64,000 nucleotides of DNA from Enterococcus hirae ATCC 9790 (GTDB lineage Bacteria; Bacillota; Bacilli; Lactobacillales; Enterococcaceae): contig NC_018081.1 of NCBI RefSeq assembly GCF_000271405.2, forward strand, positions 2,163,603 to 2,227,602, read 5' to 3'. Shown in pieces: positions 48,401 through 64,000 of the stretch. How positions within the stretch are numbered: position 1 is the stretch's first letter; each line of letters opens with the position of its first letter. A model generated the notes under the pieces. It was not told the DNA's origin, searched no databases, and was given only the letters and a program-made list of their open reading frames with translations. The translations under genes were made by a program, and so were the position numbers.

Positions 48401-50615
48401 TATTAGTCTTAAACCAAGGATTAAAAACCGATCTCAATGCGCCGATTAGTACCGATTCTTCACTTTATTATTCCATTGAAGTATTGCGAGATGGTCGTTC
48501 TGTTTATCTACAAGAGGTACCGGGACGTGCTTCTCTCCAACAGGTAATGGACAATTTCGGGACGAAACAAACGTTAAATGTCCAAGCTGGTGATGTCGTT
48601 AAAATGTATCATCCACAACGTTCAGAAGGTAGTTCAGTGTTAATGGTAGATGAAATGGAAGAAGATTATACCTATGGCTCTCAATATGCCTACTATCGAG
48701 TAACCTCCTATGGTTTTGAGCCGATGTCAGTGATTGAAGCTGTTGGCTCCAACAAAGCATTCTCATTAAAGGAGAATACTAAAACGACGGACTTGAGTCA
48801 GTTGTTAGCACAAGTATCGATCAACGGCGAAATCGTTACGAATGAAGACTATACAGTGGAGAAACTTTCTGAATTAGATACCGCAACTGTGGGCAAAAAG
48901 GAAGTCAGATTAAAACTGAGGACAGCGGATGAGACAGCAGATATCGAATTGGATGTTCCTTACGAAGTGGTTTGGGGAAGTACCTTCTTGCTTAAAGGGT
49001 TAGATGACCAGAATGTGGGCGCTTATAGTATTGTGGAACAAGACGGAGAGTGGACGATCCAAGCTGGCAAAGGGGATGATTCCACCGTCTTAACCAATCA
49101 TGTGAATAACATTTTTGGTCGCGATATTTACTATCGGATCGAGGTAGTAGCAAGTTCAGAAAATCAACCGAAGGAAGGTTCTGGTGTAACCGTTGAAAAT
49201 ATTATGGGCTTAGATCCGACGACTCGATTATCGGAACAAATAAAATACCAGTATGATGTGACTGGAAACATGACTGTGGGTCAGGCCATTAACGGGTTTA
49301 ATAATGGACAGCCGTTGTCAATTGAAGAAGGGGATATCGTAAAAGTTTATCATGCAGAGGCGAAGAATAATTTATTGATGCGAGATGACTTGACGAAAAA
49401 TTATACAGCGGGTTCAAATTATGCCTATTATCAAGTAGCCAATCAAGAATTTGAACCGATCACTGAGATCAAAGCTGAAACAATTTCACAAGAATTGACA
49501 TTAGGCGAAGATGCCAGTGATATTGATGGAATGGATTTGATCAAAAATGTTACTTTCATTGGTCAAAAATTAGATACGACATTATATGATGTTGAACAAG
49601 TTTCTGACTTTGATACGAATACCGCTGGAGCGAAGATGTTAACGGTGAAATTGTCTACCGCAGATGGTGTCACTTCTACGGATGTGGAAGTACCTTACGA
49701 AGTCAAATGGGGGAGTACGATCCAGCTCAAAAATAAAAAGGTGAAACCGTTGGTACTTTCGGCTTAACAAAAGACAAAAAACAATTGAAACTCCAGGCGT
49801 TACAAGGAAAAGAAGGAACGAACTTAGCTAGTCGAGTCACTGAAGCCAACGATGCAGATGTGTATTATGGGATCGAAGTCTTTACAAATAACACTAGTAA
49901 ATATAAATACGAAGTGCGAGGCACACAAACGATTGCCCAAGCGATCGAACGATTCAATAGTGGGGAGCCATTAAAAGTTTCTGCAGGGGATCAAATCAAA
50001 GTGTATCATACGGATCCAAGCGGGAATGTCTTGATGGCAGAAGAAACGGAGCAAAATTATACCTATGGTTCCAATTATGCGTATTATAATGTGACCGAAT
50101 ACGGCTTTGAACCAACAGGAGATTTTACCGTGACACCGGCAGAAGCAAAAATAATCATCAATACCAAACAAGTGGACCTTAAAGATCTCCTGAAAGAAGT
50201 GAAAGTCAACGGGAAAGAAGTACCGAAAAACGCTTATACCGTGAAATTGGATCCTGAAACCGAAATCGATACTTCAAGTTTAGGAAATCGTGTCGCTAAA
50301 TTAGTGGTCAAAGTTGACCGCTCTTACGGTGGATTTTCTACTGAAACTGAAGCGACTTATGAGGTGGTGAAAGAAGGAACACCAGGAGCGTTAGGAGAAA
50401 GTTCAGGGGAAGGAAATACAGAAGAAGAGACCAACGCGGAAGGTGAAGGAACAGAAGAAGCAAACGGTGGTAACTTACCAAAAACCAATGAAACCAAAAA
50501 TGCAATGTTCCCTTTATTAGGCACCGTACTAATTAGTTTGGTAGGAATGTTTCTGTTTTGGAAAAAGAAAAACCAAAAGAAGAACCAAAAAAGTAGTATA
50601 ATCCTATTGAAATAA
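45407..50615 (+). pseudogene. Large sortase-anchored surface protein 1 with repeated carbohydrate-binding-like modules, frameshifted twice
   Basis: TTG 45407 follows AAAGGAGG. If two missing A residues are restored (A6 run 45603-45608; A5 run 49735-49739) the protein has about 1736 aa. It shows a signal peptide (KKLLHSTLILALALGQTSG), a charged linker, an N-terminal beta region, then five modules of about 220 residues that begin WG(N/D/S)T near 46975, 47650, 48306, 48968 and 49703. Each module has a mucin/carbohydrate-binding-like part (GAFSL, YY-x-IEVL, GD-I-K-YH) plus an Ig-like part. It ends in LPKTN, a hydrophobic helix and basic tail (wall anchor). As given, it yields three separate frames. 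An adhesin role is inference. Confidence 0.85.
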
Positions 50616-50617
50616 AT

Positions 50618-50662
50618 AAAGCACTCATTAGTTGTCGTAAAACTTCTGATGAGTGCTTTTTT
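50618..50662 (+). terminator. Terminator of surface protein 1
   Basis: AAAGCACTCAT (50618-50628) pairs with ATGAGTGCTTT (50649-50659), then T residues. The interval 50663-51196 is AT-rich without a gene or a clear promoter. Confidence 0.88.
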
Positions 50663-51210
50663 GGCACTGAGCTTACCATTTGCACAAATAAAGCTCTATA
50701 CAAGTCTGAGGATAACAGCTATCGTCTATCAATATCCGAAAAAAATTCTTTGGTAAGCTTTGGAAAATAGCTTTTCAACGATTTTACTGTATGTATAACG
50801 AAAATTATAGTTATTATAACAAAATTAAAAATGATGTCTGCTTAACTAAACGTACATGTCGGTTTCAAGTTACTACGATAATCGTCCTGTTGAAATTTAT
50901 TCATTAACCACATCTAGAGAGTGGGTCAATTCTATCTAAAGTAAATTTTATTGTAATATCAGTATTAATCAGCGTTTTTACTATCTGAAATGAAACGGAA
51001 AAATCAATGATGATTCATCAATCCCATAAATATCAGTTTTTTTCATTTCCTTTTACATTTATAGTACAATTTAAAAAATAACGATTTTAAGTAAGTCTAT
51101 TTTTCCTGGTTTGTTGGTAAAATATGACATTGTACGATAAAATAATTCCTTATATGCTTCTTGATGAAAGAAAAATTTTTTCTTAATAGAGTAATCAAGG
51201 GAGGATTATG

Positions 51211-54200
51211 TTGAAAGATAAAAAAAGATTATTGAAAAGTGCGTTGATTTTTGCATTGATACTCGGTCAAACGAATAGTGGGACTATCGTGGGAGCAGGT
51301 TCGATGTTGCCTACAAATGAAAACAGATCTATAAGTCAAAAATCAAAAAGAACTGAAAAAACAAATCAGGGAAAAGAAAAAAAACAAGTGAAAAAGCAGA
51401 TAATAATAACCTAGTAGATTCAGAAGATGATCAAAAAAATACAACAATTTCTTCTAGAGACTCTGTGCTAACCAGTTATCAACGTGGAGAACTTAGGAAG
51501 ACAGCTTCTTCGTATTTAGAAAAAAATTTGAATGTTAGGATAAGATTTACAGTAGATGAGATTAACTTAAATTATAAAGTAGATGAACAAGTAAATTTAA
51601 AATATATACTTGTTTCAGACTTTGAGTATAGCAATCAGATAGGTCTTATGGAACCAGCTTATGACCCTGATCTCCCTCGTGATGGCATTCTGATAAAGAA
51701 TGACACAATATATTTATTACCTCAAGGGGCACCACATAATGGAACTATTCCAGAAGGTAAACATTTTAGTGTAGATTCAAAAAGCGGAAATTGGCGAATG
51801 AAATTGGTTCAATTAAATATTTGGGGTTATCAGGTTACATTCACTCGTCTGAAAATTGCGCCAAACCAACCCGAGATTTTCCCTATGGAAATCGCTTATA
51901 AACCTACTTACTTTTATGGGATAGTTAAAGAATATGATGCAATTGATTTTTCAGTAGATTTTCCTGATGCAGAAGCAAGTATTGGGAAATTGAAAGCTTC
52001 AATAAAAGATAGCGTACATACGCTTAAACAAGGTGATGAGGTACCTAACGCTGTAGAATATATTGAGTCAGTAGAGAATACTCGAGGAAATGTAAAATAT
52101 GAATGGAAAACGTCTCCTGATACGAGTCAGCCAGGAGTGCAAGAAGCGAAAATAGTAGTCAGTGATGACTCTGGAAGAACACTTGAAGTCACTGTGCCGA
52201 TTACGATTATGCCTTTGCCGCTAGAGATGTTACCAAAAGCAGGAGAACATAAAGTCATACAATATGGTGCTGTTCCAAAAGCAGCCGATTATTTTAATGT
52301 GGTGAATCATTATGAAGAGTCTACATATAAAATTGAATGGGTCAAAGCCCCTGATATGAATCAAGAGGGTGTTCAAACTTGTCTGGCGAAAGCGACCTCC
52401 TCAGATGGGCGTACTGCAGATAGTGCAGTACAAATTGAAGTTATCTCCAATCCAGGTTTAGAAGTTAAATTAAAACCATTAGAAGAACGAATATTAGGAG
52501 TATCCTACCCTTCTTTAAGTTCAAATTTTAAAAATTATATAGAAGAAGTGACACTGTTAGGTGAGAAAGTAGACGTTAATGAGCTAGAATTGGTCGTGGA
52601 CGAAACAACCGATACAAATTTTCAGACTATTGGTCAAAAAGAAGTAAACATTACAGTTAAGAAAAAAACTTCTGAGGCGAGTGTCTGGATTAAAGGAACA
52701 GGAACCACTACAGTCAACGTATTATGGGGCAATACCATCTTAATGCGTTCAATTGATGGCCATTCTGCAGGTGCTTTCACTCTTGATGTCAGTAACTCAA
52801 ATACTGACTCCGCAGCTCTTTCGATTCGCCAAGGATTAGAATCACCGTTAAACGTGGCGGTAGGAAAATTACAAGATCCATTTAAACTGTATTATCGGTT
52901 GGATATTTTACGTAATGAGAGAACGATCTATACGCAAGAAGTAACAAATCGGGCAACTTTACAAGAAATTATGAATGCTTTCGGAGATAAAGAGAATAAA
53001 ATAGAAGTTAAAATAGATGATATCATCCAAATCACACACCCAGGGAAAACAGCTAATAGCTCGGTCGTGATGATTGATGAAGAAGAAAAAGATTTTACAT
53101 ACGGAACAGAGAATGCTCGTTATCGTGTAACAGCGTATGGTTTAGACCCAGCTCCCGTAATAACAGCTGAAAGCGCAAGAGTATTTTTTTTAGGCGAAGA
53201 TATCAACCAATTGAATCCACAAGAGTTCATCAAAAATATACGTCTTAATGATCAATTAACTTCGAATGAACAGTATAAAATCAACCTTATCGATGGGGGG
53301 GATACTCGAACAGTTGGTAAGCAAACGATGAGAGTCAATATTACCACAAAAGATGGTTTAGTCTCTGAAGAAGTTGAAGTCACTTATCAAGTGAAATGGG
53401 GTGATACTTTCGTTCTAAAGGGGTTGAAAGAATCGACTGTTGGTGCATTCAGTTTACTAAAAAGTAATGATCAATGGCAGATTAAAGCTAGCCAGGGCGT
53501 AGAAGGTACAGAATTAGACGAGCCAGTCAATAACTACTTTGGCAGAGGTACCTTTTACTCCATTGAAATTTTACAGGGGACAACTAACAAGTTCCGTTAT
53601 GAAGTGATAGGCAATCAGTCGATTCGTGAATCCATCTACGGTTTCAACGAGGGAAAACCGCTGGATGTCAATGAAGGTGACGTGATCAAAGTGTACCATG
53701 CCGATTCTGTTGGGAAAAATCTATTAATGAAAGACGAATTAGTCAAGGATTACACGATGGGTTCCGATTATGCGTATTATGAAGTCACTGAATATGGCTT
53801 GGAACCAATTTTAGCGGTTGCGGCTGATTCGATGCCTCAAGAATTTACCTTGGGTGAAGACAGCAGTAACGTTGATGGATCGAAGTTGATCAATAGTATT
53901 ACGGTCAATGGAACGATAGTGGCTAGTAATTTATATACAGTCAAACAAATGAGTGATTTCGATACTTCGGTAGCTGGTTCACAAACGATCAAGGTACGTA
54001 TTGATACGAAAGATGGGCTGGTGTCAAAAGAGCTTGACGTTCCCTATGAAGTCAAATGGGGGAAAACTATTTTGATAAAAGCTCAGAATGGACAATCAGC
54101 CGGGGCCTTTTCATTATATGCGGGAACTTCCAGTACGAATCGGGTATTAGTCTTTAACCAAGGATTAAAAACCGATCTTAAGACACCAATTAGTACCGAT

Positions 54201-55623
54201 TCTTCACTTTACTATTCCATTGAAATAGTGCGTGAAGGGCGATCTGTTTACTCGCAAGAGATACCGGGTTATGCGACTTTAGAAGAGGTAATGGCTAATT
54301 TTGGCTCGAAACAAAAATTGAATGTCCAAGCAGGTGATATCATAAAACTATATCATCCCCAACGTTCAGACGGTAGTTCTGTCTTACTGGTAAATGAAAT
54401 AGAAAAGGACTATACCTATGGTTCTCCATATGCTAATTACCGCATAACTTCTTATGGTTTTGAGCCCATGCCGGTAATTGAAACTGTAGGACCAAATAAA
54501 GTTTTTTCTTTAATGGAAAACACTCAAAATATAGACTTGAGTCAGCTATTAGCGAATATAACAATCAATGGTGAACGGGTGGAAAGCAAAAATTATAAGA
54601 TTACGCAACTTTCTAAAATGGACACCTCTACTGTTGGTAAAAGAGAAGTCAAATTAAATCTTAAGCCAGAAGATGGCTCAGCAGATATTGAACTGGATGT
54701 TCCTTATGAAGTGGCTTGGGGAAGTACGATCCAACTAAAAAATCAAGATGGCGATACTGTAGGTGCCTACAGTTTGATAAAAGAAAACAAACAAATCAAA
54801 CTCCGATCATTACAGGGAGAAGACGGAAGTGACTTATCGAACCGTATCACAGAATATGATGACATGGAAATTTACTATGGGATTGAAGTTTTTACAAATA
54901 ACAGCAGTAAATATAAATACGAAGTTCGCGGTACGCAAACAATTGAACAATCGATTAATCGATTCAATAGTGGGGAACCATTAAAAGTTTCGGTGGGAGA
55001 TCAAATTAAAGTGTATCATGCCGATCCAAGTGGGAATGTCTTGATGGCAGAAGAAGAAGAGCGAAATTACACTTATGGTTCCAATTATGCGTATTACAAT
55101 GTGACTGAATATGGGTTTGAACCAACAGGAGATTTTACCGTGACACCAGCAGAAGCGAAAATAGTTATCGATACGAAACGTGTGGACCTTAAAAATCTTT
55201 TGAAAGAAGTTAAAGTCAATGGCAAAGAGCTGCCGAAAACTGCTTATACGGTTGCATTAGATCCTGAAACAGAAATCGATACTTCTTCTCGTGAAAGCTG
55301 ACCGTTCCTATGGTGGTTTTTCTACTGAAACTGAAGCGGCTTATGAAGTGGTGGAAAAAGGGACGGATGGTGCTTTAGAAGATGGTACAGAAGATAGCAT
55401 GACTGAAGATAAAGAGATCACAGGAACAGATTCAGAAAAAAAGAACTCAAATGGAGACAATACAAGTGGCGCAAAAAATGGTAATTTACCAAAAACCAAT
55501 GAAACAAAAAATACGGTTTTTACTGTATCAGGTGTCTTGATTGTTAGTTTAGCGGGAATCATCCTGTTTTGGAGAAAAAGAAAAGCAAATAAAAATTCTA
55601 AAAATAAGATAATCAGTTATTAA
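51211..55623 (+). pseudogene. Large sortase-anchored surface protein 2 (paralogue), frameshifted and with a 26-nt deletion
   Basis: TTG 51211 matches the start of surface protein 1 (AAGGGAGG, then the same TTG-AAA); ATG 51208 is the alternative. The first frame ends at 51414 after the A8 run 51377-51384 (one A short); the main frame runs on to 55301. There a 26-nt deletion at 55290/55291, judged against the paralogue (L-G-N-R-V-A-K-L-V codons missing), shifts the frame before the anchor, so LPKTN, membrane helix and basic tail are lost from the main product. Repaired length is about 1479 aa with four modules (near 52718, 53390, 54047, 54705), lacking the fourth module of paralogue 1. The modules are 70-90 percent alike between the genes. 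Confidence 0.85.
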
Positions 55624-55665
55624 AAAGCCCACGTTAGCTAGACTACAGCTGACGTGGGCTTTTTT
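55622..55665 (+). terminator. Terminator of surface protein 2
   Basis: AAAAAGCCCACGTTAGCT (55622-55639) pairs with AGCTGACGTGGGCTTTTT (55647-55664) with one G-U pair, followed by T. It also lies past the convergent HTH gene. Confidence 0.9.
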
Positions 55666-55730
55666 GTCGGTCTTCAGATTGATTAGAAAGTAGTTAGCTT
55701 TCATTGGTGTCACTCAACTAAAGAAATGAG

Positions 55731-55952
55731 CTACTCTCTCATTTGGCTTCTATCTTGATATTCGAGGATATCACCTGGTTGGCAGTTTAAAACTTCGCAA
55801 ACCTTATCGAGCGTAGAAAACCGAATCGCTTTTGCTTTACCATTTTTTAAAATAGAGATATTAGCCATCGTAAGACCTACTTTTTCACTCAGTTCGGTCA
55901 CGCTCATTTTTCGCTTGGCTAACATGACATCTAAATTGATAATAATAGACAT
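55731..55952 (-). CDS. XRE/Cro-type HTH regulator (YozG-like)
   Basis: 73 aa; nearly the whole protein is an HTH: LAKRKMSVTELSEKVGLTMANISILKNGKAKAIRFSTLDKVCEVL. ATG 55952 has GAGGTG upstream; the GTG at 55964 would overlap the DUF2975 stop. Proteins of this size are paired with DUF2975 membrane proteins in many Firmicutes and are thought to regulate their own operon. The gene begins directly after the DUF2975 gene. Confidence 0.88.
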   Translation of the reverse strand: MSIIINLDVMLAKRKMSVTELSEKVGLTMANISILKNGKAKAIRFSTLDKVCEVLNCQPGDILEYQDRSQMRE

Positions 55953-55960
55953 TCGACACC

Positions 55961-56452
55961 TCACACTGTTAAATCATAGTCATTTTTTAAATAAATGGCT
56001 TGTTTGAGTAAATCAATCAAAATGCTTGAAAGGATGTAGATAAAAAAAGGGATAAAGAGTAAGACGAAAGCGATGAGTAGGATTCCTGGACTATCGCTCA
56101 TATCAGCTATTTGGTAAAATTTTGGCAAAATACCAAATGCAAGGATCGTGATACATAAAAGGCAAGATCGGATTTTACTGATAAGCTTTAGACTCTTTTT
56201 AGTAAAAGTTTCCTTTGAAGGGAAGGTTTTGACTAAGCGGAGCAGGAAGAAATTGAGCAACAAAGTCACTAGAAGGATTAGGTAAAGAACTAGAATAAAT
56301 AGTGTAGTTTGCCAGTTGCTAAATGGATTTGTAGGATTTGTAGGATTTGTAGGATTTGTACTCAATTGAATAGTTAATAGCGTTCCCAAGAGAAGGGGAA
56401 CAAAACAAAAAACAGAAACGATTAATTGGATAAAGAACAGTTTGGATTTCAT
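55961..56452 (-). CDS. DUF2975 membrane protein
   Basis: 163 aa with four membrane helices (about 6-28, 48-70, 88-110 and 122-148). The first loop holds four TNP units (TNPTNPTNPTNP) encoded by four perfect 9-bp units (56325-56360 on the plus strand, GGATTTGTA), a slippage-prone track that keeps frame. Function unknown; paired with the HTH gene downstream. Confidence 0.85.
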   Translation of the reverse strand: MKSKLFFIQLIVSVFCFVPLLLGTLLTIQLSTNPTNPTNPTNPFSNWQTTLFILVLYLILLVTLLLNFFLLRLVKTFPSKETFTKKSLKLISKIRSCLLCITILAFGILPKFYQIADMSDSPGILLIAFVLLFIPFFIYILSSILIDLLKQAIYLKNDYDLTV

Positions 56453-56475
56453 AAAATGCCTCCTAAATTTTTATT

Positions 56476-56532
56476 AGTATAGCATGAGGTTTGTTCATTA
56501 TCAATAATTATTTATCGATAAGCGATAAATAA
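56476..56532 (-). promoter_or_regulatory. Promoter and palindromic operator of the DUF2975-HTH operon
   Basis: On the minus strand -35 TTGATA (56499-56504) and -10 TATACT (56476-56481), 17 bp apart. Upstream lies a palindrome TTATTTATCG-ATAAG-CGATAAATAA (56508-56532), a good candidate operator for the HTH protein. Confidence 0.6.
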
Positions 56533-57092
56533 AAGGATGGACAAACGCCTTTTTCAATAAAGAAAAGGCGTTCTAACGAATCATATTATATTTTAAAGCT
56601 GTAAAACTATTACTAAAAATGGACTATTTCTCATTTAAACAATGTATTCCCTAACCACTAATACATCCTTGTAACCCTGAAGTTACGCCAGTGGGATTAA
56701 ATTTCATCAAAACAAATCAAAATCTCGCATAAAATATTTATCGCAATAGATTAATTATAACATATCATTTGCAAAAAAGATATTTAATTTAGATTACATT
56801 TACGATAGTTTTAAATAACAGAACTTTTAAGGAGAAAAACGTATCATTATCATGTTTATACCCTCCCAAATCTAAAGTAAATATGCTAAAATCACAAATA
56901 ACAACGAAGATCATGATTGGTTGGGGAAATTTATTCCTATTTTTCGTTATTAAAATTAGGTGTACAAATAACTAATTGTTTTATTTTGTTTGGTTGTGGG
57001 GAGTGGAGAAACAAAATACGCTAATATAAATTGTTATATAAGTATGGATAAAAAATTCAGATAAAATTATTAAGTTGTTAGGGGAAGTTTAA
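56533..57092. other. AT-rich region before the agr-like locus
   Basis: A stem AACGCCTTTT/AAAAGGCGTT at 56544-56572 is followed by a short tail. The rest is AT-rich with TTGTTATATAAG near 57040 and GTTAGGGGAAG before the sensor kinase. No gene is seen. Confidence 0.4.
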
Positions 57093-58379
57093 ATGAAATT
57101 AAATGAAGAAAGTTTATTTATCCTAATTTTGATTGGTCAGCTTTACACTGTTTTTATGGCTCTTGGTTATCTAAGGAATCTTTTATCAAATAAAAAATTT
57201 CAATTGTTTTCGTTTATTAGTGTAATCGCTTATATTGCTTTATATCAATGGATCAATATCATTGCGACAGTTATCTTATGGGCTGGGTTATGTCTAAGTA
57301 TCTATATCATTGATCGAAACATTGATATAGCGATATTTTATCCTTCGATTATTTTATTTTTCTACATATTCATTGATGGAACAGCCAAATATCTATATAA
57401 AATTTTAGAGTGGGATATCAGCGATTTTTTTACAGCTGTTTTAGGAACAGGTTGTTTGTGGATCGTTACTGTTTTTCTAAAAAAAATGGTCATACCGAAG
57501 ATTGTTAGGGATAAAACGACTTTAAAAATAGCGGCCATCGTTGTTTTTTTTACGATTATTATTTATTTTATTAACATTTGTAGTGATCGTTTTTCTGTTT
57601 TAGCAAGATTCCTAGTTATCAGTAATGAATTATTTACGGTTCTTTATGGTGTAATGTCTACCATAATTTATTGTGTACTACTTTTTATCAAGAAAAAAGA
57701 ATTCGAAACACGAGAGCAGCAAAAAGAAATGCGTCACCTGATTGAATACAGTGAACAGATCGAAAATAACTATCTTGCATTACGAAAATTTAAACACGAT
57801 TATAAGAATATTTTGTTTTCAATAGAGGATTATATTCAAACAAAGGATATTGAAGGGCTGCAAAAGTATTTTTATCAAAGTATCAAAGCTACTGAAACGA
57901 TTTTTGAAGAAAACAATCTCCCAATTGCTTCGATTTCAAATCTTAAAATTAGAGAGATAAAAAGCATTATTTTGAGTAAATTATACGTGGCTAGCCAAAA
58001 GGGTGTCGAAGTAAACGTAATGATTCCAACACCCATTACGGATATCGCTATCTCAACAGTCACACTTGTTCGTATGCTAGGGATTATACTGGATAATGCA
58101 ATTGAAGAATCAGCCTTTTTAGAAAAGGGAAAAATTGAATTGACTATTATGGAGGAAGACAAAAATTGTTTTTTTGTCTTAATGAATCAATGTCGTTCGA
58201 GTATTCCTAAATTACATGAATTGAAAAAAGTGAATTTTACTACTAAAAAAGGAAATCAAGGACTAGGTCTAACGAATCTGGACGAGCTTGTTCATTTGAA
58301 CGAGAATGTTTTTTTAGAAACAAAAATTGAAAACAATCGCTTTATACAAATCATAACGATTAGTGGAATGAGGGGCTAG
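57093..58379 (+). CDS. AgrC-like sensor histidine kinase (HPK10 type)
   Basis: 428 aa. Residues 1-about 205 contain six or seven membrane helices that would form the peptide sensor. The cytoplasmic part has the atypical HPK10 phosphoacceptor FKHDYKNILFSI (His about 235), an N-box GIILDNAIEESAF and a GHKL G-box KGNQGLGLTNL. This is the receptor class for cyclic autoinducer peptides. GGGGAAG precedes ATG. It ends 2 nt before the response regulator gene, so the pair is coupled. Order C-A-B-D differs from staphylococcal B-D-C-A. Confidence 0.93.
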   Translation: MKLNEESLFILILIGQLYTVFMALGYLRNLLSNKKFQLFSFISVIAYIALYQWINIIATVILWAGLCLSIYIIDRNIDIAIFYPSIILFFYIFIDGTAKYLYKILEWDISDFFTAVLGTGCLWIVTVFLKKMVIPKIVRDKTTLKIAAIVVFFTIIIYFINICSDRFSVLARFLVISNELFTVLYGVMSTIIYCVLLFIKKKEFETREQQKEMRHLIEYSEQIENNYLALRKFKHDYKNILFSIEDYIQTKDIEGLQKYFYQSIKATETIFEENNLPIASISNLKIREIKSIILSKLYVASQKGVEVNVMIPTPITDIAISTVTLVRMLGIILDNAIEESAFLEKGKIELTIMEEDKNCFFVLMNQCRSSIPKLHELKKVNFTTKKGNQGLGLTNLDELVHLNENVFLETKIENNRFIQIITISGMRG

Positions 58380-58381
58380 TA

Positions 58382-59086
58382 ATGTTAAAAATATTTGTTT
58401 GTGATGATGAAATTGCTCATCGAAATAAGCTTACTCGGATGATTACAAATTATTTATTGATGAAAGACTATGATGTTCAATTCCAATTTGCTACGGATGA
58501 TCCAATGATGATCTTGTTGTTTATTTCAAAACATAAAACAGAAGGAATCTATTTTTTGGATATTGATCTAAAAACGGATTTAAATGGGATCGAGTTAGCA
58601 AAAAAAATCAGAGATTACGACCCAACAGCAAAAATCATTTTTGTGACAACTTATACAGATTTAGTCTATTTAACTTTTTTATACAAAGTCGAAGCAATAG
58701 ATTACATCGTTAAAGATAATATGGATACCTTTCAAAAGAGAGTGACGGAATGTATTGACGTCGCAGTTGAACGCTATTTGAATACAAATCTGGAAACTAG
58801 ACCCCAAATTTGGATTAAGAATGGTCCAGTTGATGTAAAGTTATATGTCGATGAAATATTTTATTTTGAATCTAGTCCAACACCCCATAAATTGATCGTC
58901 TATTTAGATAACCGCAGAATTGAGTATATAGGGAAGATCAAAGAAGTAGAAAGTATGTATGAGGTATTTTGTCGTTGCCATCAATCTTATGTAGTTAATC
59001 TGATGAATGTGAAAGAAATCAATAAAAAAGAACGAGTGATCACTATGGCCAATGGAGCAAAATGTTTAGTTTCTACTCGTCATTAA
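58382..59086 (+). CDS. AgrA-like LytTR response regulator
   Basis: 234 aa. A receiver domain (1-about 125) has acidic pocket D8, D9 and the phosphoacceptor D60 in YFLDIDLK; a Thr at VTTYTD and a Lys (IVKDN) complete it. The C-terminal LytTR DNA-binding domain (about 135-234) has IWIKNGPVDVKLYVDEIFYFESSP and CRCHQSYVVNLMNVKEINKK. It should bind direct repeats, and such repeats lie in the adjacent agrB promoter. Translation is coupled to the kinase. Confidence 0.95.
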   Translation: MLKIFVCDDEIAHRNKLTRMITNYLLMKDYDVQFQFATDDPMMILLFISKHKTEGIYFLDIDLKTDLNGIELAKKIRDYDPTAKIIFVTTYTDLVYLTFLYKVEAIDYIVKDNMDTFQKRVTECIDVAVERYLNTNLETRPQIWIKNGPVDVKLYVDEIFYFESSPTPHKLIVYLDNRRIEYIGKIKEVESMYEVFCRCHQSYVVNLMNVKEINKKERVITMANGAKCLVSTRH

Positions 59087-59148
59087 AAAAAAGTAGTAAA
59101 TCAGTTCAAGAAATTAACCAGTTGTTGATTACATCTCCAGGTATTCCG

Positions 59149-59213
59149 CACTTTTGATCAAATAACGTTCACTTTTGATAAAACCAACTATCTTATAAAA
59201 AAACAAATATAAT
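59149..59213 (+). promoter_or_regulatory. Predicted LytTR binding repeats and agrB promoter
   Basis: Direct repeat CACTTTTGAT at 59149-59158 and 59170-59179, start-to-start 21 bp (two helical turns), as expected for AgrA/FsrA-type LytTR regulators. A -10 TATAAT lies at 59208-59213; the position of the -35 (59185-59190, CAACTA) fits poorly, which is usual for activator-dependent promoters. The transcript would start about 15 nt before the agrB ribosome site. Confidence 0.65.
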
Positions 59214-59236
59214 ATAGATGAAAAGGAGCGGATCAA

Positions 59237-59833
59237 ATGTCGGAAGAATCTATATCTTTAGAAGAAAAAGTTTCAAAAACAATTAGTAAGCGGATAGGAA
59301 GACAATTACAATTGTCAGAAATTGACTTGGCAAAAATGGAATATGGATTAGCTGTTCTTCTGGTAATTAGTTCAAAGATATTTTTTATCTACTGTTTAGC
59401 TGGGTGTCTTCATATTATTCTGCCGGTTTTAACTACCCATTTGGCATTTACACTAATGAGAAGAACAACAAAAAGTTTCCATGCAAGAGATAGTAATGTA
59501 TGTACGGTCTTAAGTCTATTTTTCTTTGTCTTATTACCATATCTAGTTACTACTTTTGCTGTAGATGTCACAAGAGCCAGCTTTGTGATCTGCAGTCTCA
59601 TGATTTGCTTGATCTTGTGGTTCAAAGGGATAGTGATCGCACAAAAATCGGCGAAAAGTTCTTTGCTAAATGGAAAGAGCCAGATGATAGTGGTCAGTTT
59701 GTTCCTAACTATTTTTGGTGGGGTTCAATCAAGTAACCGTATTCGTACCTTACTGTTGTTAGGCATGATGATCTCAACCCTTTTAATGTTTGTTCAAAAA
59801 AGAAAGGATGAAGAAAATGTTAAAAAAAATTAG
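59237..59833 (+). CDS. agrB: AgrB-family cyclic peptide-processing protease
   Basis: 198 aa membrane endopeptidase that cuts and cyclises the AgrD propeptide. Catalytic H82 and C89 lie in TTKSFHARDSNVC with the family's 7-residue spacing. Four to six membrane segments follow from about 40 onward. AAAAGGAGCGG precedes ATG. It overlaps agrD by 17 nt. Confidence 0.94.
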   Translation: MSEESISLEEKVSKTISKRIGRQLQLSEIDLAKMEYGLAVLLVISSKIFFIYCLAGCLHIILPVLTTHLAFTLMRRTTKSFHARDSNVCTVLSLFFFVLLPYLVTTFAVDVTRASFVICSLMICLILWFKGIVIAQKSAKSSLLNGKSQMIVVSLFLTIFGGVQSSNRIRTLLLLGMMISTLLMFVQKRKDEENVKKN

Positions 59834-59975
59834 CTCAAGAAAATTAAAATATATGCGAATTTTAGCAACTGTTGCTATTGCTGTTGCTACAGAAGCTATA
59901 GGTAAAGGAACAATGTGTACAGGAATTATTTATGAACCAAAAGTACCTGATGCATTGAAACAAATCGAAAAATAA
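59817..59975 (+). CDS. agrD: AgrD-type cyclic autoinducer propeptide
   Basis: 52 aa from ATG 59817 (AAAGG 9 nt upstream). An N-terminal amphipathic leader (MLKKISSRKLKYMRILATVA) is followed by a small-residue stretch, then T-M-C34-T-G-I-I, and a charged tail Y-E-P-K-V-P-D-A-L-K-Q. In AgrD proteins the ring is Cys plus the next four residues, directly before the acidic/Pro tail, so the predicted ring is C-T-G-I-I (thiolactone). The N-terminal tail length of the mature signal is unknown. The Y-E-P pattern resembles Listeria AgrD; C-x-G-I-x resembles L. plantarum LamD. Confidence 0.88.
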   Translation: MLKKISSRKLKYMRILATVAIAVATEAIGKGTMCTGIIYEPKVPDALKQIEK

Positions 59976-60021
59976 ACTTGGAAATCGAAATACTAGTGGA
60001 ATAAAAAGAATTCATTGTACG

Positions 60022-60079
60022 AATAAGTCTTAGGATCAAAAATAGTAGTTGCTATTTTGACCCTAAGACTTATTTTTTT
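60022..60079 (+). terminator. Terminator of the agr-like operon
   Basis: AATAAGTCTTAGG at the base (from 60022) pairs with CCTAAGACTTATT (to 60074), with an inner stem TCAAAA/TTTTGA and a T7 tail. It overlaps the end of the convergent small gene. Confidence 0.9.
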
Positions 60080-60243
60080 CGATAATTTTGTAAGAGCAAA
60101 ACAAATATAAAAAAGAAAAAAGATTCCCATAATGTCGTTGTCCAACTAAATTCTTTTGAAATTCCAAAAAATAAATTCCCTGCATTAGAAACGATTAAAT
60201 AAATTAAGGTAGTTATTAGAGCATAAATTATTTTCTTTACCAT
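60070..60243 (-). CDS. 57-aa two-helix membrane protein convergent with agrD
   Basis: MVKKIIYALITTLIYLIVSN begins the first helix; a second hydrophobic run (about 37-52, WESFFFFIFVLLLQ) ends with a basic NYRKK. Ribosome site GGGGTG is rather far (about 11 nt), so the start is only fairly supported. Its 3' end overlaps the agr terminator. No family is recognised. The position beside a peptide-signal locus invites a guess of an accessory or protective role, but nothing in the sequence proves it. Confidence 0.6.
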   Translation of the reverse strand: MVKKIIYALITTLIYLIVSNAGNLFFGISKEFSWTTTLWESFFFFIFVLLLQNYRKK

Positions 60244-60664
60244 AATCTCACAACACCCCTTTTTTCAAAAACATGGCTAAAGCGTTCCATTTCTTCAAAT
60301 GATCTTTACTTAAGTATAATTCATTTAAAAGATATTTGGAAAGAAATTTTATCTGTTTTTTACAGATATGAAAGAAGAAAGAGAGTAGGAAACGATAAAT
60401 ATTAGAAAATTTTCATAGAAACTGATAGTTTTTTGCAATAATAACTGAGCATTATCTTTGCATTTTTTAATGTAGACTACTATCCTTTAAATATACCCAA
60501 TAGAAAAAAGGCAACACAGTCTATTGGAGGGAAACGTTATTTATGAATGATTGTCATAGAAAGTGAAAAAAGGCTATTAGTATTAGCATGGCATGGTAGC
60601 GCTTTCTATTAAATCTTGTAAATAACATGTGTGATCACGGTCAATTAGAAGTAGGAGGTGGAGA
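60244..60664 (+). promoter_or_regulatory. Upstream region of the second stress operon, with a possible leader peptide and cre-like site
   Basis: About 420 bp. An ATG at 60543 with a strong TTGGAGGG site encodes only MNDCHRK and stops at 60566, a possible leader peptide. A sequence ATGGTAGCGCTTTCT (60593-60607) fits the CcpA cre consensus except at one position. No clear sigma-A promoter is seen nearby. AGTAGGAGGTGG is the ribosome site of amaP. Confidence 0.4.
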
Positions 60665-61228
60665 ATGAATAAAGGGTGGAAGATCGTCGGTATTCTTGCA
60701 AGTTTATTCTTGCTGACGGTGCTTTTAGGGATCGCGTTGATCAACGCACCGTATATGATGCCAGAACAGTTGGAACGTTTTCGATTTTTTGTCATAACGA
60801 ACTACTACGTGCAACAATATCTATTTTGGACAGCTGTCGTTTTTGCTATACTTGTGCTTATTTTGTTATTAGTTGTTCTTTTCTATCCAAAATCCAAAGG
60901 GACGTTTGTTTTAAAACAAAAAGATGGAAAACTGACTTTAGACAAGAAAGCAATCGAAGGGCTTGTGCGATCACAATTACATGAAGAAGAATTTGTTGGT
61001 TCACCAAAAGTTCGAGTACGCTCAACAAAAAATAAAATCAATGTCCATGTAAAAGGGGATTTAAAACGAACATCCTCTTTAATTGGTAAAACAGGAGAAT
61101 TGATGCGTGACATTGAACAACAAGTGGCACGAGTACTTGGTACTGAACAAAACATCGCTGTAGCTGTTACTTATAGTGGATTTGAAGATTATGACAGTAA
61201 TGCACACAAGCACGCTCGAGTAGAATAG
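60665..61228 (+). CDS. amaP: Alkaline shock response membrane anchor protein AmaP, copy 2
   Basis: 187 aa with two membrane helices (about 8-30, 50-76) then LTLDKKAIEGLVRSQLHEEEF and a basic Asp23-like domain ending EDYDSNAHKHARVE. About 60 percent like copy 1 at 43328. AGGAGGTGG precedes ATG. It should anchor the Asp23-like protein encoded two genes downstream at the membrane. Confidence 0.93.
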   Translation: MNKGWKIVGILASLFLLTVLLGIALINAPYMMPEQLERFRFFVITNYYVQQYLFWTAVVFAILVLILLLVVLFYPKSKGTFVLKQKDGKLTLDKKAIEGLVRSQLHEEEFVGSPKVRVRSTKNKINVHVKGDLKRTSSLIGKTGELMRDIEQQVARVLGTEQNIAVAVTYSGFEDYDSNAHKHARVE

Positions 61229-61240
61229 GAGGGGCCCATC

Positions 61241-61429
61241 ATGAAAGAGATATTTTCAGCGTACAAGCTCCCTATTATCTTCGGGGGACTTGGCTTACTG
61301 TTAGCTGTTTTATGGATAACAGTTGGATTTTTTAAAACACTTCTAATATTAATCATGACTGCTATAGGTGCAGGCATTGGTTTTTATTTGAAAGAAACAA
61401 AAATATTTGATCAATTTTTTAAATCTTAG
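61241..61429 (+). CDS. DUF2273 small membrane protein, copy 2
   Basis: 62 aa: two membrane helices and a tail KETKIFDQFFKS. Nearly the same layout as 43910-44092. AGGAGGGG precedes ATG. Small partner of AmaP and Asp23; function not established. Confidence 0.9.
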   Translation: MKEIFSAYKLPIIFGGLGLLLAVLWITVGFFKTLLILIMTAIGAGIGFYLKETKIFDQFFKS

Positions 61430-61441
61430 GAGGAACTGGAC

Positions 61442-61987
61442 ATGGAAAACAAAGAAATCAAAAACACAAATACAATGACATCTGAGAATAACCATATTTC
61501 ACGTGGAGAATTAACTTACGAAGATAAAGTAATTCAAAAAATCATCGGTTATGCTTTGAAAGATGTTGATGGTTTATTAACATTAGATGGCGGTTTCTTC
61601 TCAAACATTGCTGAAAAATTAGTGAACACGGATAACGTCACAGCAGGAATCAATGCAGAAGTTGGTAAAAAACAAGTAGCTGTTGACTTAGATGTAGTTG
61701 TAGAATACGGAAAAGATATTGAAAATATCTATGATCAAATTAAAGACTTGATCAGCCGTGAAGTGAATGATATGACACATTTAGATGTAATCGAAGTGAA
61801 TGTGAATGTAGTTGATATCAAAACACAAGAAGAATATGCAAAAGATCAAGAAACTGTCCAAGACAAAGTGACAGATGCTGCTAAATCAACTGGCCAATTT
61901 GCTTCAAAACAAACAGATAAAGCAAAAGCAGCTATGAATAAAGGAACACAAAAAGTGAAAGAAAACACTGAACCACGTGTTCAGTAA
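61442..61987 (+). CDS. Asp23/Gls24 family envelope stress protein (gls20-like)
   Basis: 181 aa, intact. Short N-terminus, then the Asp23 domain (LTYEDKVIQKIIGYALKDVDGLLTLDGG..., VTAGINAEVGKKQVAVDLDV..., MTHLDVIEVNVNVVDIKTQEEY) and a Lys/Thr/Gln-rich tail. The size fits the 20-kDa E. faecium form. The family supports wall integrity and bile resistance. AGGAGG precedes ATG. Unlike the first operon's copy it has no PVSAHPDP repeats and no frameshift. Confidence 0.94.
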   Translation: MENKEIKNTNTMTSENNHISRGELTYEDKVIQKIIGYALKDVDGLLTLDGGFFSNIAEKLVNTDNVTAGINAEVGKKQVAVDLDVVVEYGKDIENIYDQIKDLISREVNDMTHLDVIEVNVNVVDIKTQEEYAKDQETVQDKVTDAAKSTGQFASKQTDKAKAAMNKGTQKVKENTEPRVQ

Positions 61988-62023
61988 TTGATTGTTAGTA
62001 AAAGAAATTAGGAGGAAATTAAA

Positions 62024-62266
62024 ATGGGATTTATTTGGTCATTAATCGTCGGTGGTATTATCGGAGCAATTGCAGGGGCTATTACAAATAAAGGTTCTTC
62101 AATGGGAATCATTGCTAACGTAGTCGCAGGTCTAGTTGGATCAGCGATCGGACAAGCTTTACTTGGCACTTGGGGACCAAGTATCGGGGGCATGGCAATC
62201 GTTCCATCATTGATTGGTGCAATCATTCTTGTATTGGTCGTATCATTCTTTGCTCGTAAACTGTAA
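62024..62266 (+). CDS. glsB: GlsB/YeaQ/YmgE family stress membrane protein
   Basis: 80 aa with three hydrophobic segments rich in Gly and Ala: MGFIWSLIVGGIIGAIAGAI, a middle NVVAGLVGSAIGQALLG, and a C-terminal LVVSFFARKL. This is the small partner of Gls24 proteins. AGGAGG precedes ATG. It closes the operon amaP-DUF2273-Asp23-glsB; no equivalent follows the first operon. Confidence 0.93.
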   Translation: MGFIWSLIVGGIIGAIAGAITNKGSSMGIIANVVAGLVGSAIGQALLGTWGPSIGGMAIVPSLIGAIILVLVVSFFARKL

Positions 62267-62309
62267 GAATTTGATCGGATCATTTGATCGATCATAAATA
62301 AAATCAGAA

Positions 62310-63988
62310 GAGAGTGGGACAATAGTTCTTTCTCAAAAAGAAAATAAGTTCGATTTTGATGTTTATTGTCAAAATCGAACTTATTTTTTCTGTTTTGCGC
62401 ACTTTCCTCTCCATATATTTTTCCTAATTTTCTTAAATTTAATGCCATCAGTGCCAAACCAATATCAATCGTTGCTCCTTGTTTCCCACGCAAATGGAAA
62501 CGATGGAACGCCAAATGAGCCTTTAGATGTCCGAACACGGGTTCGACATCCATTTTTCGTTTCCGATAAATCGAACCAGTTTTCTCCTCTAAAAGCTTTT
62601 TTTCTGCATTCTGCTTTGAAATAGCGCCTAATTATTATTTACTTGAATTTTTCGCTTTTGTTCACTTTCGCACGCGTACATTGACGACGAACTGAACAGT
62701 TCCGACAATCCTCACATTCATAGATTTTGAAATCTCGAATAAAGCCACCTTTATCTTTTCTGCGACTATAATTTTTGAACGGTACCGGACGATTCGCTGG
62801 GCAAATATAGGTGTCTTGTTCTTCAAGATAACGCCAATTCTCCACGTTAAACGGATTATCCTTGTACTTCTTTTTATTTTCTTTGTGATAACTGCCATAT
62901 GTAATTAAGGGAGTTTTATGTAGAACATCGTTGATATACATGTAATTTTCTTCGCTACCATACCCTGCATCTGCCACAATGTACTCCGGTAACTCCTTAT
63001 GTCGGTCTAAAAAACTGTCTAAAAATGGATTCAATGTTTTGGTGTCTGTGGGATTTGGAAATAATTCATAGCTCAAAACATACTGATTTTCGGTGGCGAT
63101 TTGTAAATTATAACCTGGCTTGAGCTGTCCATTTCGCATATAATCGTCTTTCATCCGCATAAAGGTGGCATCAGTATCTGTTTTTGAAAAGCTATTTCGT
63201 TCTTGAAATAGTTGAGCATACCGTTCATACTTTTGTTTTCTTGGCAGATAATCCGTTTGTACCTGTCGGAGATATTTTTTATACATTCTTCTTTTTTTCT
63301 TTAGTTGACTTTGCTTTTCTTTGCATTTTTCATGTGTTAATTGTACTTGTGTTTCATGGAGTTCAGCTTCTAAATGATGAGCGACTTCTTCTAACTGGTC
63401 GCTCGTCAATCCATCGGATTGACTTTCTTCTTTTAAGCAAGGAAGAATTTCCTCTTGATAAAGCGTTTGATAAAAAGCTTCTGATTTTTCATCTAACAAC
63501 CGTTCATACCGAGTGGTGGCTTTACGCCAAACAAAGCTGAACTTATTGGCGTCTGCTTCAATTTTCGTACCGTCAACGAAGATGGCTTCATTATCTATCA
63601 CTTGATTGGTTATCAGTTGACGGCGAAACAACACAAAAAGCCTCTGCTAGAAGCTGAGCTGTCGTTTCCTGACTTCTGAATCGATTGATCGTGCGGGTAA
63701 CTCACTTGTTCATGATTGGCTAGCCAACGCATACGGTAACTATCGTCTAATAAAAATTCGATCTTTCTGCCAGAAAAAAACACGTTGCGTGTAGGCATAA
63801 AGAAGAATTTTCAACATCATTTTGGGGTGATAGGCTGGACGTCCCAGCTGTTGTTCAATTTGGTTGAAGAGCGCTTGCGGGATTGCTTCTACTAACGAGT
63901 GAACCGCAAAGGCAACATCCGTTTCTGGAATATAATGTTCTACATCTAGTGGTAAAGTTGTTTGGTTGATGGTATAATTTTTAAACAT
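62310..63988 (-). mobile_element. IS1182-type insertion sequence, transposase frameshifted, right end outside the window
   Basis: The transposase starts at ATG 63988 (GGAG 8 nt upstream: MFKNYTINQTTLPLDVEHYI) and reads leftward in broken frames. Breaks: T7 instead of T6 near 63774-63780 (after AYTQRVF), an extra C in a TACCCGC near 63697, T5 instead of T4 near 63635 (A5 on the plus strand), and a stop with loss of frame near 62640. The DDE-type body (62639-63634: NQVIDNEAIFVDGTKIEA..., KPGYNLQIATEN, VADAGYGSEEN) and the C-terminal VEPVFGHLKAHLAFHRFHLR are intact. The left end is approximate. It cannot encode a full enzyme as given. Confidence 0.85.
62341..62389 (+). terminator. Terminator after glsB, shared with the IS end
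   Basis: AAAATAAGTTCGATTTTGA (62341-62359) is complementary to 62369-62387, with T6 on the right and A-rich on the left, so it may work in both directions, ending glsB from the left and the transposase from the right. Confidence 0.9.
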
Positions 63989-64000
63989 AAGGCACACTCC

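What the first reader, a model, noticed from the sequence alone, without database searches (positions are those of the whole stretch)
57093..59975. agr-type quorum-sensing locus with a predicted C-T-G-I-I ring, unlike the enterococcal Fsr signal
Seen: kinase with FKHDYKN and GHKL boxes, LytTR regulator, AgrB with H82/C89, and a 52-aa AgrD whose Cys34-Thr-Gly-Ile-Ile is followed by Tyr-Glu-Pro-Lys-Val-Pro-Asp-Ala-Leu. Known: AgrD rings are Cys plus four residues before an acidic/Pro tail (Listeria, L. plantarum LamD); E. faecalis Fsr uses a Ser lactone. Inferred: a thiolactone pentapeptide-core signal made by this strain, possibly controlling adhesion genes next door.
Basis: partly seen in the sequence, partly recalled or inferred. 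Interest (0 to 1): 0.78.

Follow-up and report, generated by a model that had tools for sequence, protein, structure and literature searches.

The report
Enterococcal agr peptide-signalling locus
This is a real four-gene bacterial communication module of the well-known agr kind, whose predicted ring-shaped peptide signal differs between related enterococci while its machinery and its control switch stay the same.

Summary
In detail: agrC 57093-58379, agrA 58382-59086, agrB 59237-59833, agrD 59817-59975, plus strand, each with family-level support; AgrB His82/Cys89 invariant in 10 of 10. New: a 9-12-9 direct repeat with TATAAT 29 nt downstream lies before agrB. In the genus this element occurs only before agrB or agrD: 14 sites, in exactly the 11 of 15 genomes with an unbroken agr1 agrB. 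It has the geometry of S. aureus AgrA sites and predicts feedback onto signal production. No second such repeat lies in the window, so control of the neighbouring surface proteins is unsupported, though relatives of those proteins lie by the agr site in three other genomes. A second agr locus here has a nearly fixed signal (CFGMS in 7 of 9) but a shortened AgrA. The window's AgrA is 11-16 residues shorter than 8 of 8 relatives, so activity is uncertain. New member of a known kind.

The parts
57093..58379 (+). agrC, receptor histidine kinase (428 aa): six hydropathy-predicted membrane segments in residues 7-192, FKHDYKN phosphoacceptor motif, GHKL domain
58382..59086 (+). agrA, receiver plus LytTR response regulator (234 aa); stops one residue after the position of S. 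aureus Arg233, 11-16 residues before the ends of 8 of 8 relatives
59149..59178 (+). direct repeat CACTTTTGA-N12-CACTTTTGA, predicted AgrA binding site
   Evidence: geometry as in PMC10482373
59208..59213 (+). TATAAT, predicted -10 box, 29 nt after the repeat; same spacing at all 14 genus sites found
59237..59833 (+). agrB, AgrD-processing membrane protease (198 aa), His82/Cys89
59817..59975 (+). agrD, signal precursor (52 aa); overlaps agrB by 17 nt; predicted ring C34-T-G-I-I38, tail Y39-E-P-K-V-P-D-A-L47
60021..60075 (+). strong hairpin followed by a U run, predicted terminator after agrD
   Evidence: fold z-score -7.1, 0 of 200 shuffles as stable; not flagged by the simple terminator scan

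Best explanation
This is an agr quorum-sensing locus in gene order C-A-B-D. Shown by sequence: the four genes, the conserved AgrB His/Cys pair, the conserved AgrD tail and the promoter element. Inferred: AgrB removes the tail after Ile38 and closes a Cys34-to-Ile38 thiolactone; a second cut frees the peptide, with or without Met33 in front. AgrC senses it with its fast-diverging membrane half and phosphorylates AgrA. AgrA binds the 9-12-9 repeat upstream of agrB and raises agrBD transcription. Because agrC and agrA lie upstream of this promoter, the feedback boosts mainly signal production, not the receptor. Ring and sensor vary between species while tail, kinase and AgrA are kept, so agr1 acts as a species- or species-group-specific signal. 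What it controls beyond agrBD is not known.
For: Domain hits for all four proteins. AgrB His82/Cys89 invariant in 10 of 10. Nine rings but one tail pattern in 12 of 12 agr1-type AgrDs; E40 and L47 have the same spacing as S. aureus AgrD E34 and L41, described as essential for recognition and processing by AgrB (PMC10482373 passage). Identity to the window: AgrA 62-79%, AgrC kinase 57-68%, AgrC sensor 28-46%, AgrB 35-55% (8 named relatives). The repeat plus TATAAT is found in exactly 11 of 15 genus genomes, those with an unbroken agr1 agrB; all 14 sites precede agrB or agrD; 0 of 4 genomes without intact agr1 have it; the reversed control gives 0 in 105 genomes. In three genomes (E. thailandicus and two unnamed species) agrD sits between agrC and agrA and has its own copy of the element at the same spacing. 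Two 9-bp sites 12 bp apart is the layout of S. aureus P2 and of LytTR repeats, many with a CACTT core (PMC6193735 passages). AgrA keeps His169 and Arg233 of the S. aureus DNA-reading residues.
Against: The third DNA-reading residue, Asn201, is Gln here. The window's AgrA is shorter at its C terminus than 8 of 8 relatives, so the loop may be weak or dead in this strain. No peptide, transcript or binding data exist here. The 11 genomes are related, so the co-occurrence counts are not independent events. Outside the genus the element is found in 7 of 90 genomes, at a single conserved stretch that is not agr. No terminator was seen between agrA and agrB, so agrB and agrD may also be read from the agrC promoter.
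Confidence: 0.8

Rival explanations
1. The locus is a weakened relic in this strain: the genes are expressed but AgrA, shortened at its DNA-binding end, cannot drive the loop properly, as part of ongoing agr loss in the group.
For: AgrA ends 11-16 residues before 8 of 8 relatives. In S. aureus an extra base at the 3' end of agrA is the commonest agr frameshift and delays activation (PMC10482373 passage). Other genus members lack agr1: its flanking genes are present without it in G002 and G004, and agrB and agrA are in pieces in G005. The second system's AgrA is also cut short in this genome.
Against: Arg233 is kept and S. aureus AgrA itself ends only five residues after it. The other three frames, the perfect repeat and the -10 box are intact; in G005, where the genes are broken, the repeat is gone too.
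Confidence: 0.25
2. The main output of agr1 is the peptide itself: a self-amplifying signal that interferes with receptors of competing strains or species, rather than a regulator of many genes.
For: The full element occurs once in this genome and in the genus only before agrB or agrD. Rings diversify while the companion system's ring is almost fixed. Cross-species inhibition that depends on an agr-type locus is reported for L. paraplantarum (PMC12405376 abstract and passages).
Against: AgrA may act on degenerate sites; a relaxed core search gave 32 sites against 11 in the control, so weak targets cannot be excluded. In L. paraplantarum the same kind of locus affects genes of various categories.
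Confidence: 0.12
3. agr1 controls the large surface proteins (mucin-binding, Rib and LPXTG domains) encoded just upstream.
For: Neighbourhood, 45790-55623; relatives of these proteins lie by the agr site in G002, G005 and L052. lamBDCA disruption reduces adherence in L. plantarum WCFS1 (PMC12405376 passages).
Against: No second repeat in the window at up to 3 mismatches. The surface protein stays in place in G002, which has no agr1, and in G005, where it is broken. An HTH/DUF2975 pair on the other strand separates the two blocks. The lamB mutation did not change adherence in L. paraplantarum. In the 8 named loci with agrC only 215-1794 bases before it can be read, too little to judge.
Confidence: 0.1

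Closest known systems
Lactiplantibacillus plantarum lamBDCA (LamD558, CVGIW)
   Same: Pentapeptide thiolactone Cys-x-Gly-Ile-x, made from an AgrD-type precursor; LamB, LamC and LamA homologous to the Agr proteins (PMC12405376 passages)
   Different: Gene order B-D-C-A; ring residues 2 and 5 differ; L. plantarum adds the LamKR two-component system
Listeria monocytogenes agrBDCA
   Same: Ring of Cys plus four residues; tail beginning YEPK (recalled); exotail-free thiolactones that rearrange to homodetic peptides (PMC11297923 abstract and passages)
   Different: Ring sequence and gene order (order recalled)
Staphylococcus aureus agr
   Same: Two 9-bp AgrA sites 12 bp apart at P2; AgrC kinase and AgrA LytTR domain homologous; AgrB His/Cys pair (S. 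aureus numbers recalled)
   Different: There P2 drives agrBDCA together and P3 drives RNAIII (PMC10046512 legend); here the element lies between agrCA and agrBD
Enterococcus faecalis fsr (GBAP)
   Same: Enterococcal AgrC/AgrA-type peptide signalling
   Different: Lactone ring four residues larger; fsrD lies within fsrB in another frame (PMC3673130 passages)
Second agr locus of the same genome (agr2, L018, agrB-D-C-A)
   Same: agrB, agrD, agrC and agrA genes in the same organism
   Different: Ring CFGMS and tail SEFKIPEKLKK, nearly invariant across the genus; no copy of the agr1 repeat there; AgrA2 191 aa here, full length in the other 8 of 9 read

Membership tests
agr quorum-sensing system | AgrB-family membrane protease with His/Cys pair | tested here: met
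   Pfam AgrB 50.3 bits over cut-off 23; His82 and Cys89 invariant in 10 of 10. The narrower NCBIfam model NF002210 is matched below its cut-off, 66.3 of 282
agr quorum-sensing system | AgrD precursor with Cys ring and acidic/Pro tail | tested here: met
   TIGR04223 31 bits over cut-off 19; tail pattern in 12 of 12 agr1-type AgrDs
agr quorum-sensing system | AgrC-type kinase with multi-pass sensor | tested here: met
   Match to S. aureus AgrC kinase chain 6e52 at 1.6e-42; six hydropathy segments. The staphylococcal NCBIfam AgrC model is matched over nearly full length below its cut-off, 204.6 of 500
agr quorum-sensing system | AgrA-type LytTR regulator | tested here: met
   LytTR and receiver domains over cut-off; ungapped match to S. 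aureus AgrA DNA-binding domain 3bs1; NCBIfam AgrA equivalog cut-off not reached, 222.9 of 400
agr quorum-sensing system | AgrA-type direct repeats before the signal genes | tested here: met
   9-12-9 repeat and TATAAT in 11 of 11 genus genomes with unbroken agr1 agrB; binding itself not tested
agr quorum-sensing system | Cyclic thiolactone peptide is made and sensed | not testable with these tools
   Needs mass spectrometry and reporter assays
Fsr (E. faecalis) | Ser-closed lactone (recalled); fsrD wholly inside fsrB | tested here: not met
   Ring residue is Cys34; agrD overlaps agrB by only 17 nt; Fsr layout
S. aureus-type agr with RNAIII | Regulatory RNA beside the locus under AgrA control | tested here: inconclusive
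   The only Rfam hit at gathering score in 50000-64000 is BsrC, present in 13 of 15 genus genomes including G002 and G004 without agr1, so not an RNAIII counterpart; an undescribed RNA would not be found this way. No second AgrA-type repeat in the window

The most novel reading that the evidence does not exclude
Enterococci of the faecium-hirae-mundtii group run two parallel agr channels: agr2 with a signal kept almost letter-perfect across species (a shared language) and agr1 with a ring that changes from species to species (a private language). The agr1 regulator has a private promoter element used only for its own signal genes, so agr1's output may be largely the peptide itself, used for kin recognition or interference.
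Probability: 0.2. Interest if true: 0.75.

Novelty: new member of a known kind. Interest (0 to 1): 0.45.

Why it matters
agr systems are a main route of Gram-positive cell-to-cell signalling. In the listings and passages I saw, enterococcal work of this kind deals mostly with E. faecalis Fsr; agr genes of E. faecium and E. lactis are named there but their signals are not defined. Here two signal rings, a predicted AgrA site and a natural presence/loss series in one genus make signal specificity and its evolution directly testable with a handful of synthetic peptides and one reporter.

Tried and rejected
RNAIII-like RNA: the Rfam hit BsrC (56629-56716) lies in the 640-bp gap before agrC but is present in 13 of 15 genus genomes, including G002 and G004 which lack agr1, so it does not depend on agr. 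A wider regulon: 15 sites at up to 3 mismatches in the genome against 7 for the reversed pattern, and 32 against 11 for a relaxed core plus TATAAT. Of these I looked at 11 chosen sites plus the agrB control: 3 lie inside opposite-strand frames, 1 overlaps a start codon, 3 have a frame of 70 codons or more beginning within 250 nt downstream (154 aa, 115 aa and a TTG-started 91 aa), 4 have none. The 154-aa one is a weak lead; its gene is full length only in this genome, so the site cannot be footprinted. Of 22 sites at up to 2 mismatches in the genus (reversed control 4), 13 are at agrB or agrD and 9 are not; of the 9, 7 lie in open frames of 498 codons or more and 2 in frames of 116 and 131.

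The first named-genome search with the single AgrB found nothing; the alignment search gave 10 loci, one of them a distant Caldanaerobacter that I did not use further. A structure prediction of AgrB was queued but had not finished when I stopped, so no model is used. Strain identity: contig sizes fit E. hirae ATCC 9790 as I recall them; own-genome records may be hidden from the plasmid search, the genome paper is not held, and one search shows only its listing.

Limits of counts. TIGR04223 gave 15 genus matches over cut-off; 12 are agr1-type, one is agr2 (G003), one a third type (G001, ring CFFSF), and one (G012:C5) I did not resolve. The ring list comes from a regular expression and would miss precursors without that pattern. 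'Unbroken' agrB rests on my frame reading; marks a stop inside the matched stretch for G008 and G013, which is the gene's own end. In one search one AgrA1 (G009) was missed by the pattern, so AgrA1 identities to the window rest on three of four pairs. In one search, 8 of the 9 enterococcal named loci were used; L052 was left out because agrC is missing in that assembly. The named loci are mostly the same genomes as the unnamed handles, judged by matching coordinates, so the two sets are not added together.

For that the adhesin rival rose from 0.07 to 0.10.
Full report
What is there. The four genes agrC, agrA, agrB and agrD lie at 57093-59975 on the plus strand exactly as described. Each passes a family test: AgrC has a GHKL domain and matches the solved S. 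aureus AgrC kinase; AgrA has receiver and LytTR domains and aligns without gaps to the S. aureus AgrA DNA-binding domain over residues 143-233; AgrB exceeds its Pfam cut-off and AgrD its NCBIfam cut-off. The narrower NCBIfam models for AgrC, AgrA and AgrB are matched below their cut-offs. AgrC shows six hydropathy segments before its kinase half. A strong hairpin with a U run follows agrD (60021-60075).

The host. The window lies in a genome of two contigs, 2,827,741 and 28,699 bases. I recall these sizes as those of Enterococcus hirae ATCC 9790, but no call confirms it; one search shows only that this strain has a chromosome and the plasmid pTG9790. Named relatives of AgrB are E. villorum, E. 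ratti, E. mundtii (two strains), E. thailandicus and four unnamed Enterococcus species, at 35-57% identity.

The signal. In the genus, a relative of the window's AgrB at E<=0.001 is found in 12 of 15 genomes, unbroken in 11; in G005 agrB and agrA are in pieces. The agr1-type AgrDs of these 12 genomes all carry Cys plus four residues followed by YEPK, a variable residue, P, D or E, A, L. The rings are CTGII, CTVAV, CTLAV, CIGLV, CLFAI, CTFVI (three genomes), CHFAT, CLLAT (two genomes) and CLLMT. The Glu and Leu of the tail have the same spacing as two S. aureus AgrD tail residues described as essential for processing by AgrB (PMC10482373, passages only). Where the leader is cut is unknown; rings without an exotail rearrange spontaneously in the Listeria work (PMC11297923, abstract and passages), so the free peptide may be short-lived.

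Divergence pattern. Against eight named relatives the window's AgrA is 62-79% identical, the AgrC kinase 57-68%, the AgrC sensor 28-46%, AgrB 35-55% and AgrD 39-51%. That is the pattern expected if signal, processing enzyme and sensor drift together while the output half is kept.

The promoter element. Between agrA and agrB stands CACTTTTGA-N12-CACTTTTGA (59149-59178), with TATAAT 29 nt after it (59208-59213). It is a perfect match and the only one in the window at up to 3 mismatches; shuffles gave a mean of 0.27 such matches, and 24 of 100 had at least one. The repeat lies before agrB in 11 of 11 aligned genomes. With the TATAAT at fixed spacing and up to 3 mismatches, 105 genomes of the family were searched: 11 of 15 genomes of the genus have it, 14 sites in all, every one before agrB or agrD; the four genus genomes without it are those where agr1 is absent or broken (G002, G003, G004, G005). 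Among the other 90 genomes 7 have a hit, all the same non-agr stretch at 3 mismatches. The reversed pattern gave none in 105. In three genomes (E. thailandicus and two relatives) agrD lies between agrC and agrA and carries its own copy of the element with the same spacing, so the element follows the signal genes and not the place. The layout equals that of S. aureus P2, two 9-bp AgrA sites 12 bp apart (PMC10482373 passage), and the half site shares the CACTT core of many listed LytTR repeats (PMC6193735 passages). I conclude that it is most likely the AgrA site, and that feedback here acts on agrBD rather than on the whole operon. Binding was not tested.

Regulon. At up to 3 mismatches the repeat has 15 matches in the genome against 7 for the reversed control, and a relaxed core plus TATAAT 32 against 11; only the agrB site is perfect. 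Weak targets therefore remain possible.

Neighbours. The surface proteins upstream (45790-55623; mucin-binding, Rib and LPXTG domains) have no repeat near them. Their relatives do lie beside the agr site in G005, where agr1 is broken, in G002, where it is absent, and in L052, whose assembly looks chimeric; in L047 and the E. mundtii locus L049 a relative of the regulator gene that separates them in G005 is seen before the readable flank ends. So the neighbourhood is old, but the surface protein outlives agr1, which speaks against dependence on it. A link remains possible and unsupported.

Loss and place. agr1 sits between a BsrC RNA plus a DUF2975/HTH gene pair and the gls24/Asp23 operon. In G002 these two flanks, 3.28 kb apart in the window, are about 116 bases apart, and G004 also has the flanking genes without agr. 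In the E. thailandicus-type genomes the Asp23 gene is on another contig than agr. BsrC occurs in 13 of 15 genomes irrespective of agr1. Whether the absences are losses or the presences gains was not tested on a tree; the decayed copy in G005 points to loss.

Two systems. The same genome has a second agr locus, order B-D-C-A (L018). A profile search finds some AgrB in 15 of 15 genus genomes and in 42 of 105 of the family. The agr2 signal ring is CFGMS in 7 of 9 readable genomes, CFGIM and CFGML in the other two; in G002 the locus runs off its contig. For the window genome against four others, AgrB of agr1 is 44-52% identical and of agr2 79-86%; AgrD of agr1 40-52% and of agr2 97-100%. One channel is therefore nearly fixed and the other diversifies. 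AgrA2 is full length in 8 of 9 genomes read; in this genome it is 191 aa and ends inside its LytTR domain.

Doubt about activity. The window's AgrA ends one residue after the position of S. aureus Arg233, while 8 of 8 relatives continue for 11-16 residues more and S. aureus AgrA for five after Arg233. A frameshift at the 3' end of agrA delays agr activation in S. aureus (PMC10482373 passage). The locus may therefore be weak in this strain.

Literature. Nine text searches were answered, seven of them touching agr or fsr in enterococci. E. faecium agrB, agrC and agrA are reported as up-regulated in a heat-adapted strain (PMC10046512 passages), and agrB is listed in three Enterococcus isolates and agrD in one, named Enterococcus lactis (PMC13191895 passages). 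None of the listings or passages I saw defines these rings or the repeat; most subscription journals are not held, so absence in print is not shown.

Verdict.

Noticed in passing
G000:C2 about 595000-598000, L018:4984-7840: Second agr locus (agrB-D-C-A), AgrD2 ring CFGMS, nearly invariant across the genus; AgrA2 is cut short in this genome by an in-frame stop inside the LytTR domain.
   Followed up: yes
window 56629-56716 +: Rfam BsrC small RNA (57 bits, gathering 38) in the long gap before agrC; present in 13 of 15 genus genomes, also in two without agr1; function not looked up beyond a search listing.
   Followed up: partly
L114:1629-2324 (G000:C2:1457400 on): A 154-aa predicted secreted, bacteriocin-like protein (my impression, no family hit) with a 71-aa membrane-like ORF behind it; a degenerate agr1-like element lies 65 nt upstream (3 mismatches of 18). 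Full length only in this genome of 15; partial matches in 2.
   Followed up: partly
L052 and L007 (Enterococcus sp. 10A9_DIV0425): A surface-protein frame runs up to the agrA side with an adapter-like DVYKRQ peptide and agrC is missing; probably an assembly chimera.
   Followed up: no
window 45790-55623: Two very large mucin-binding/Rib-domain surface-protein frames, each followed by a short frame with an LPXTG-type anchor (49785-50615 and 55291-55623), so body and anchor are in separate frames.
   Followed up: no
G001:C23:36958-37676 (L034): A further AgrB/AgrD pair with ring CFFSF and tail YEPKKPDILKK, a third type of agr signal in the genus.
   Followed up: no
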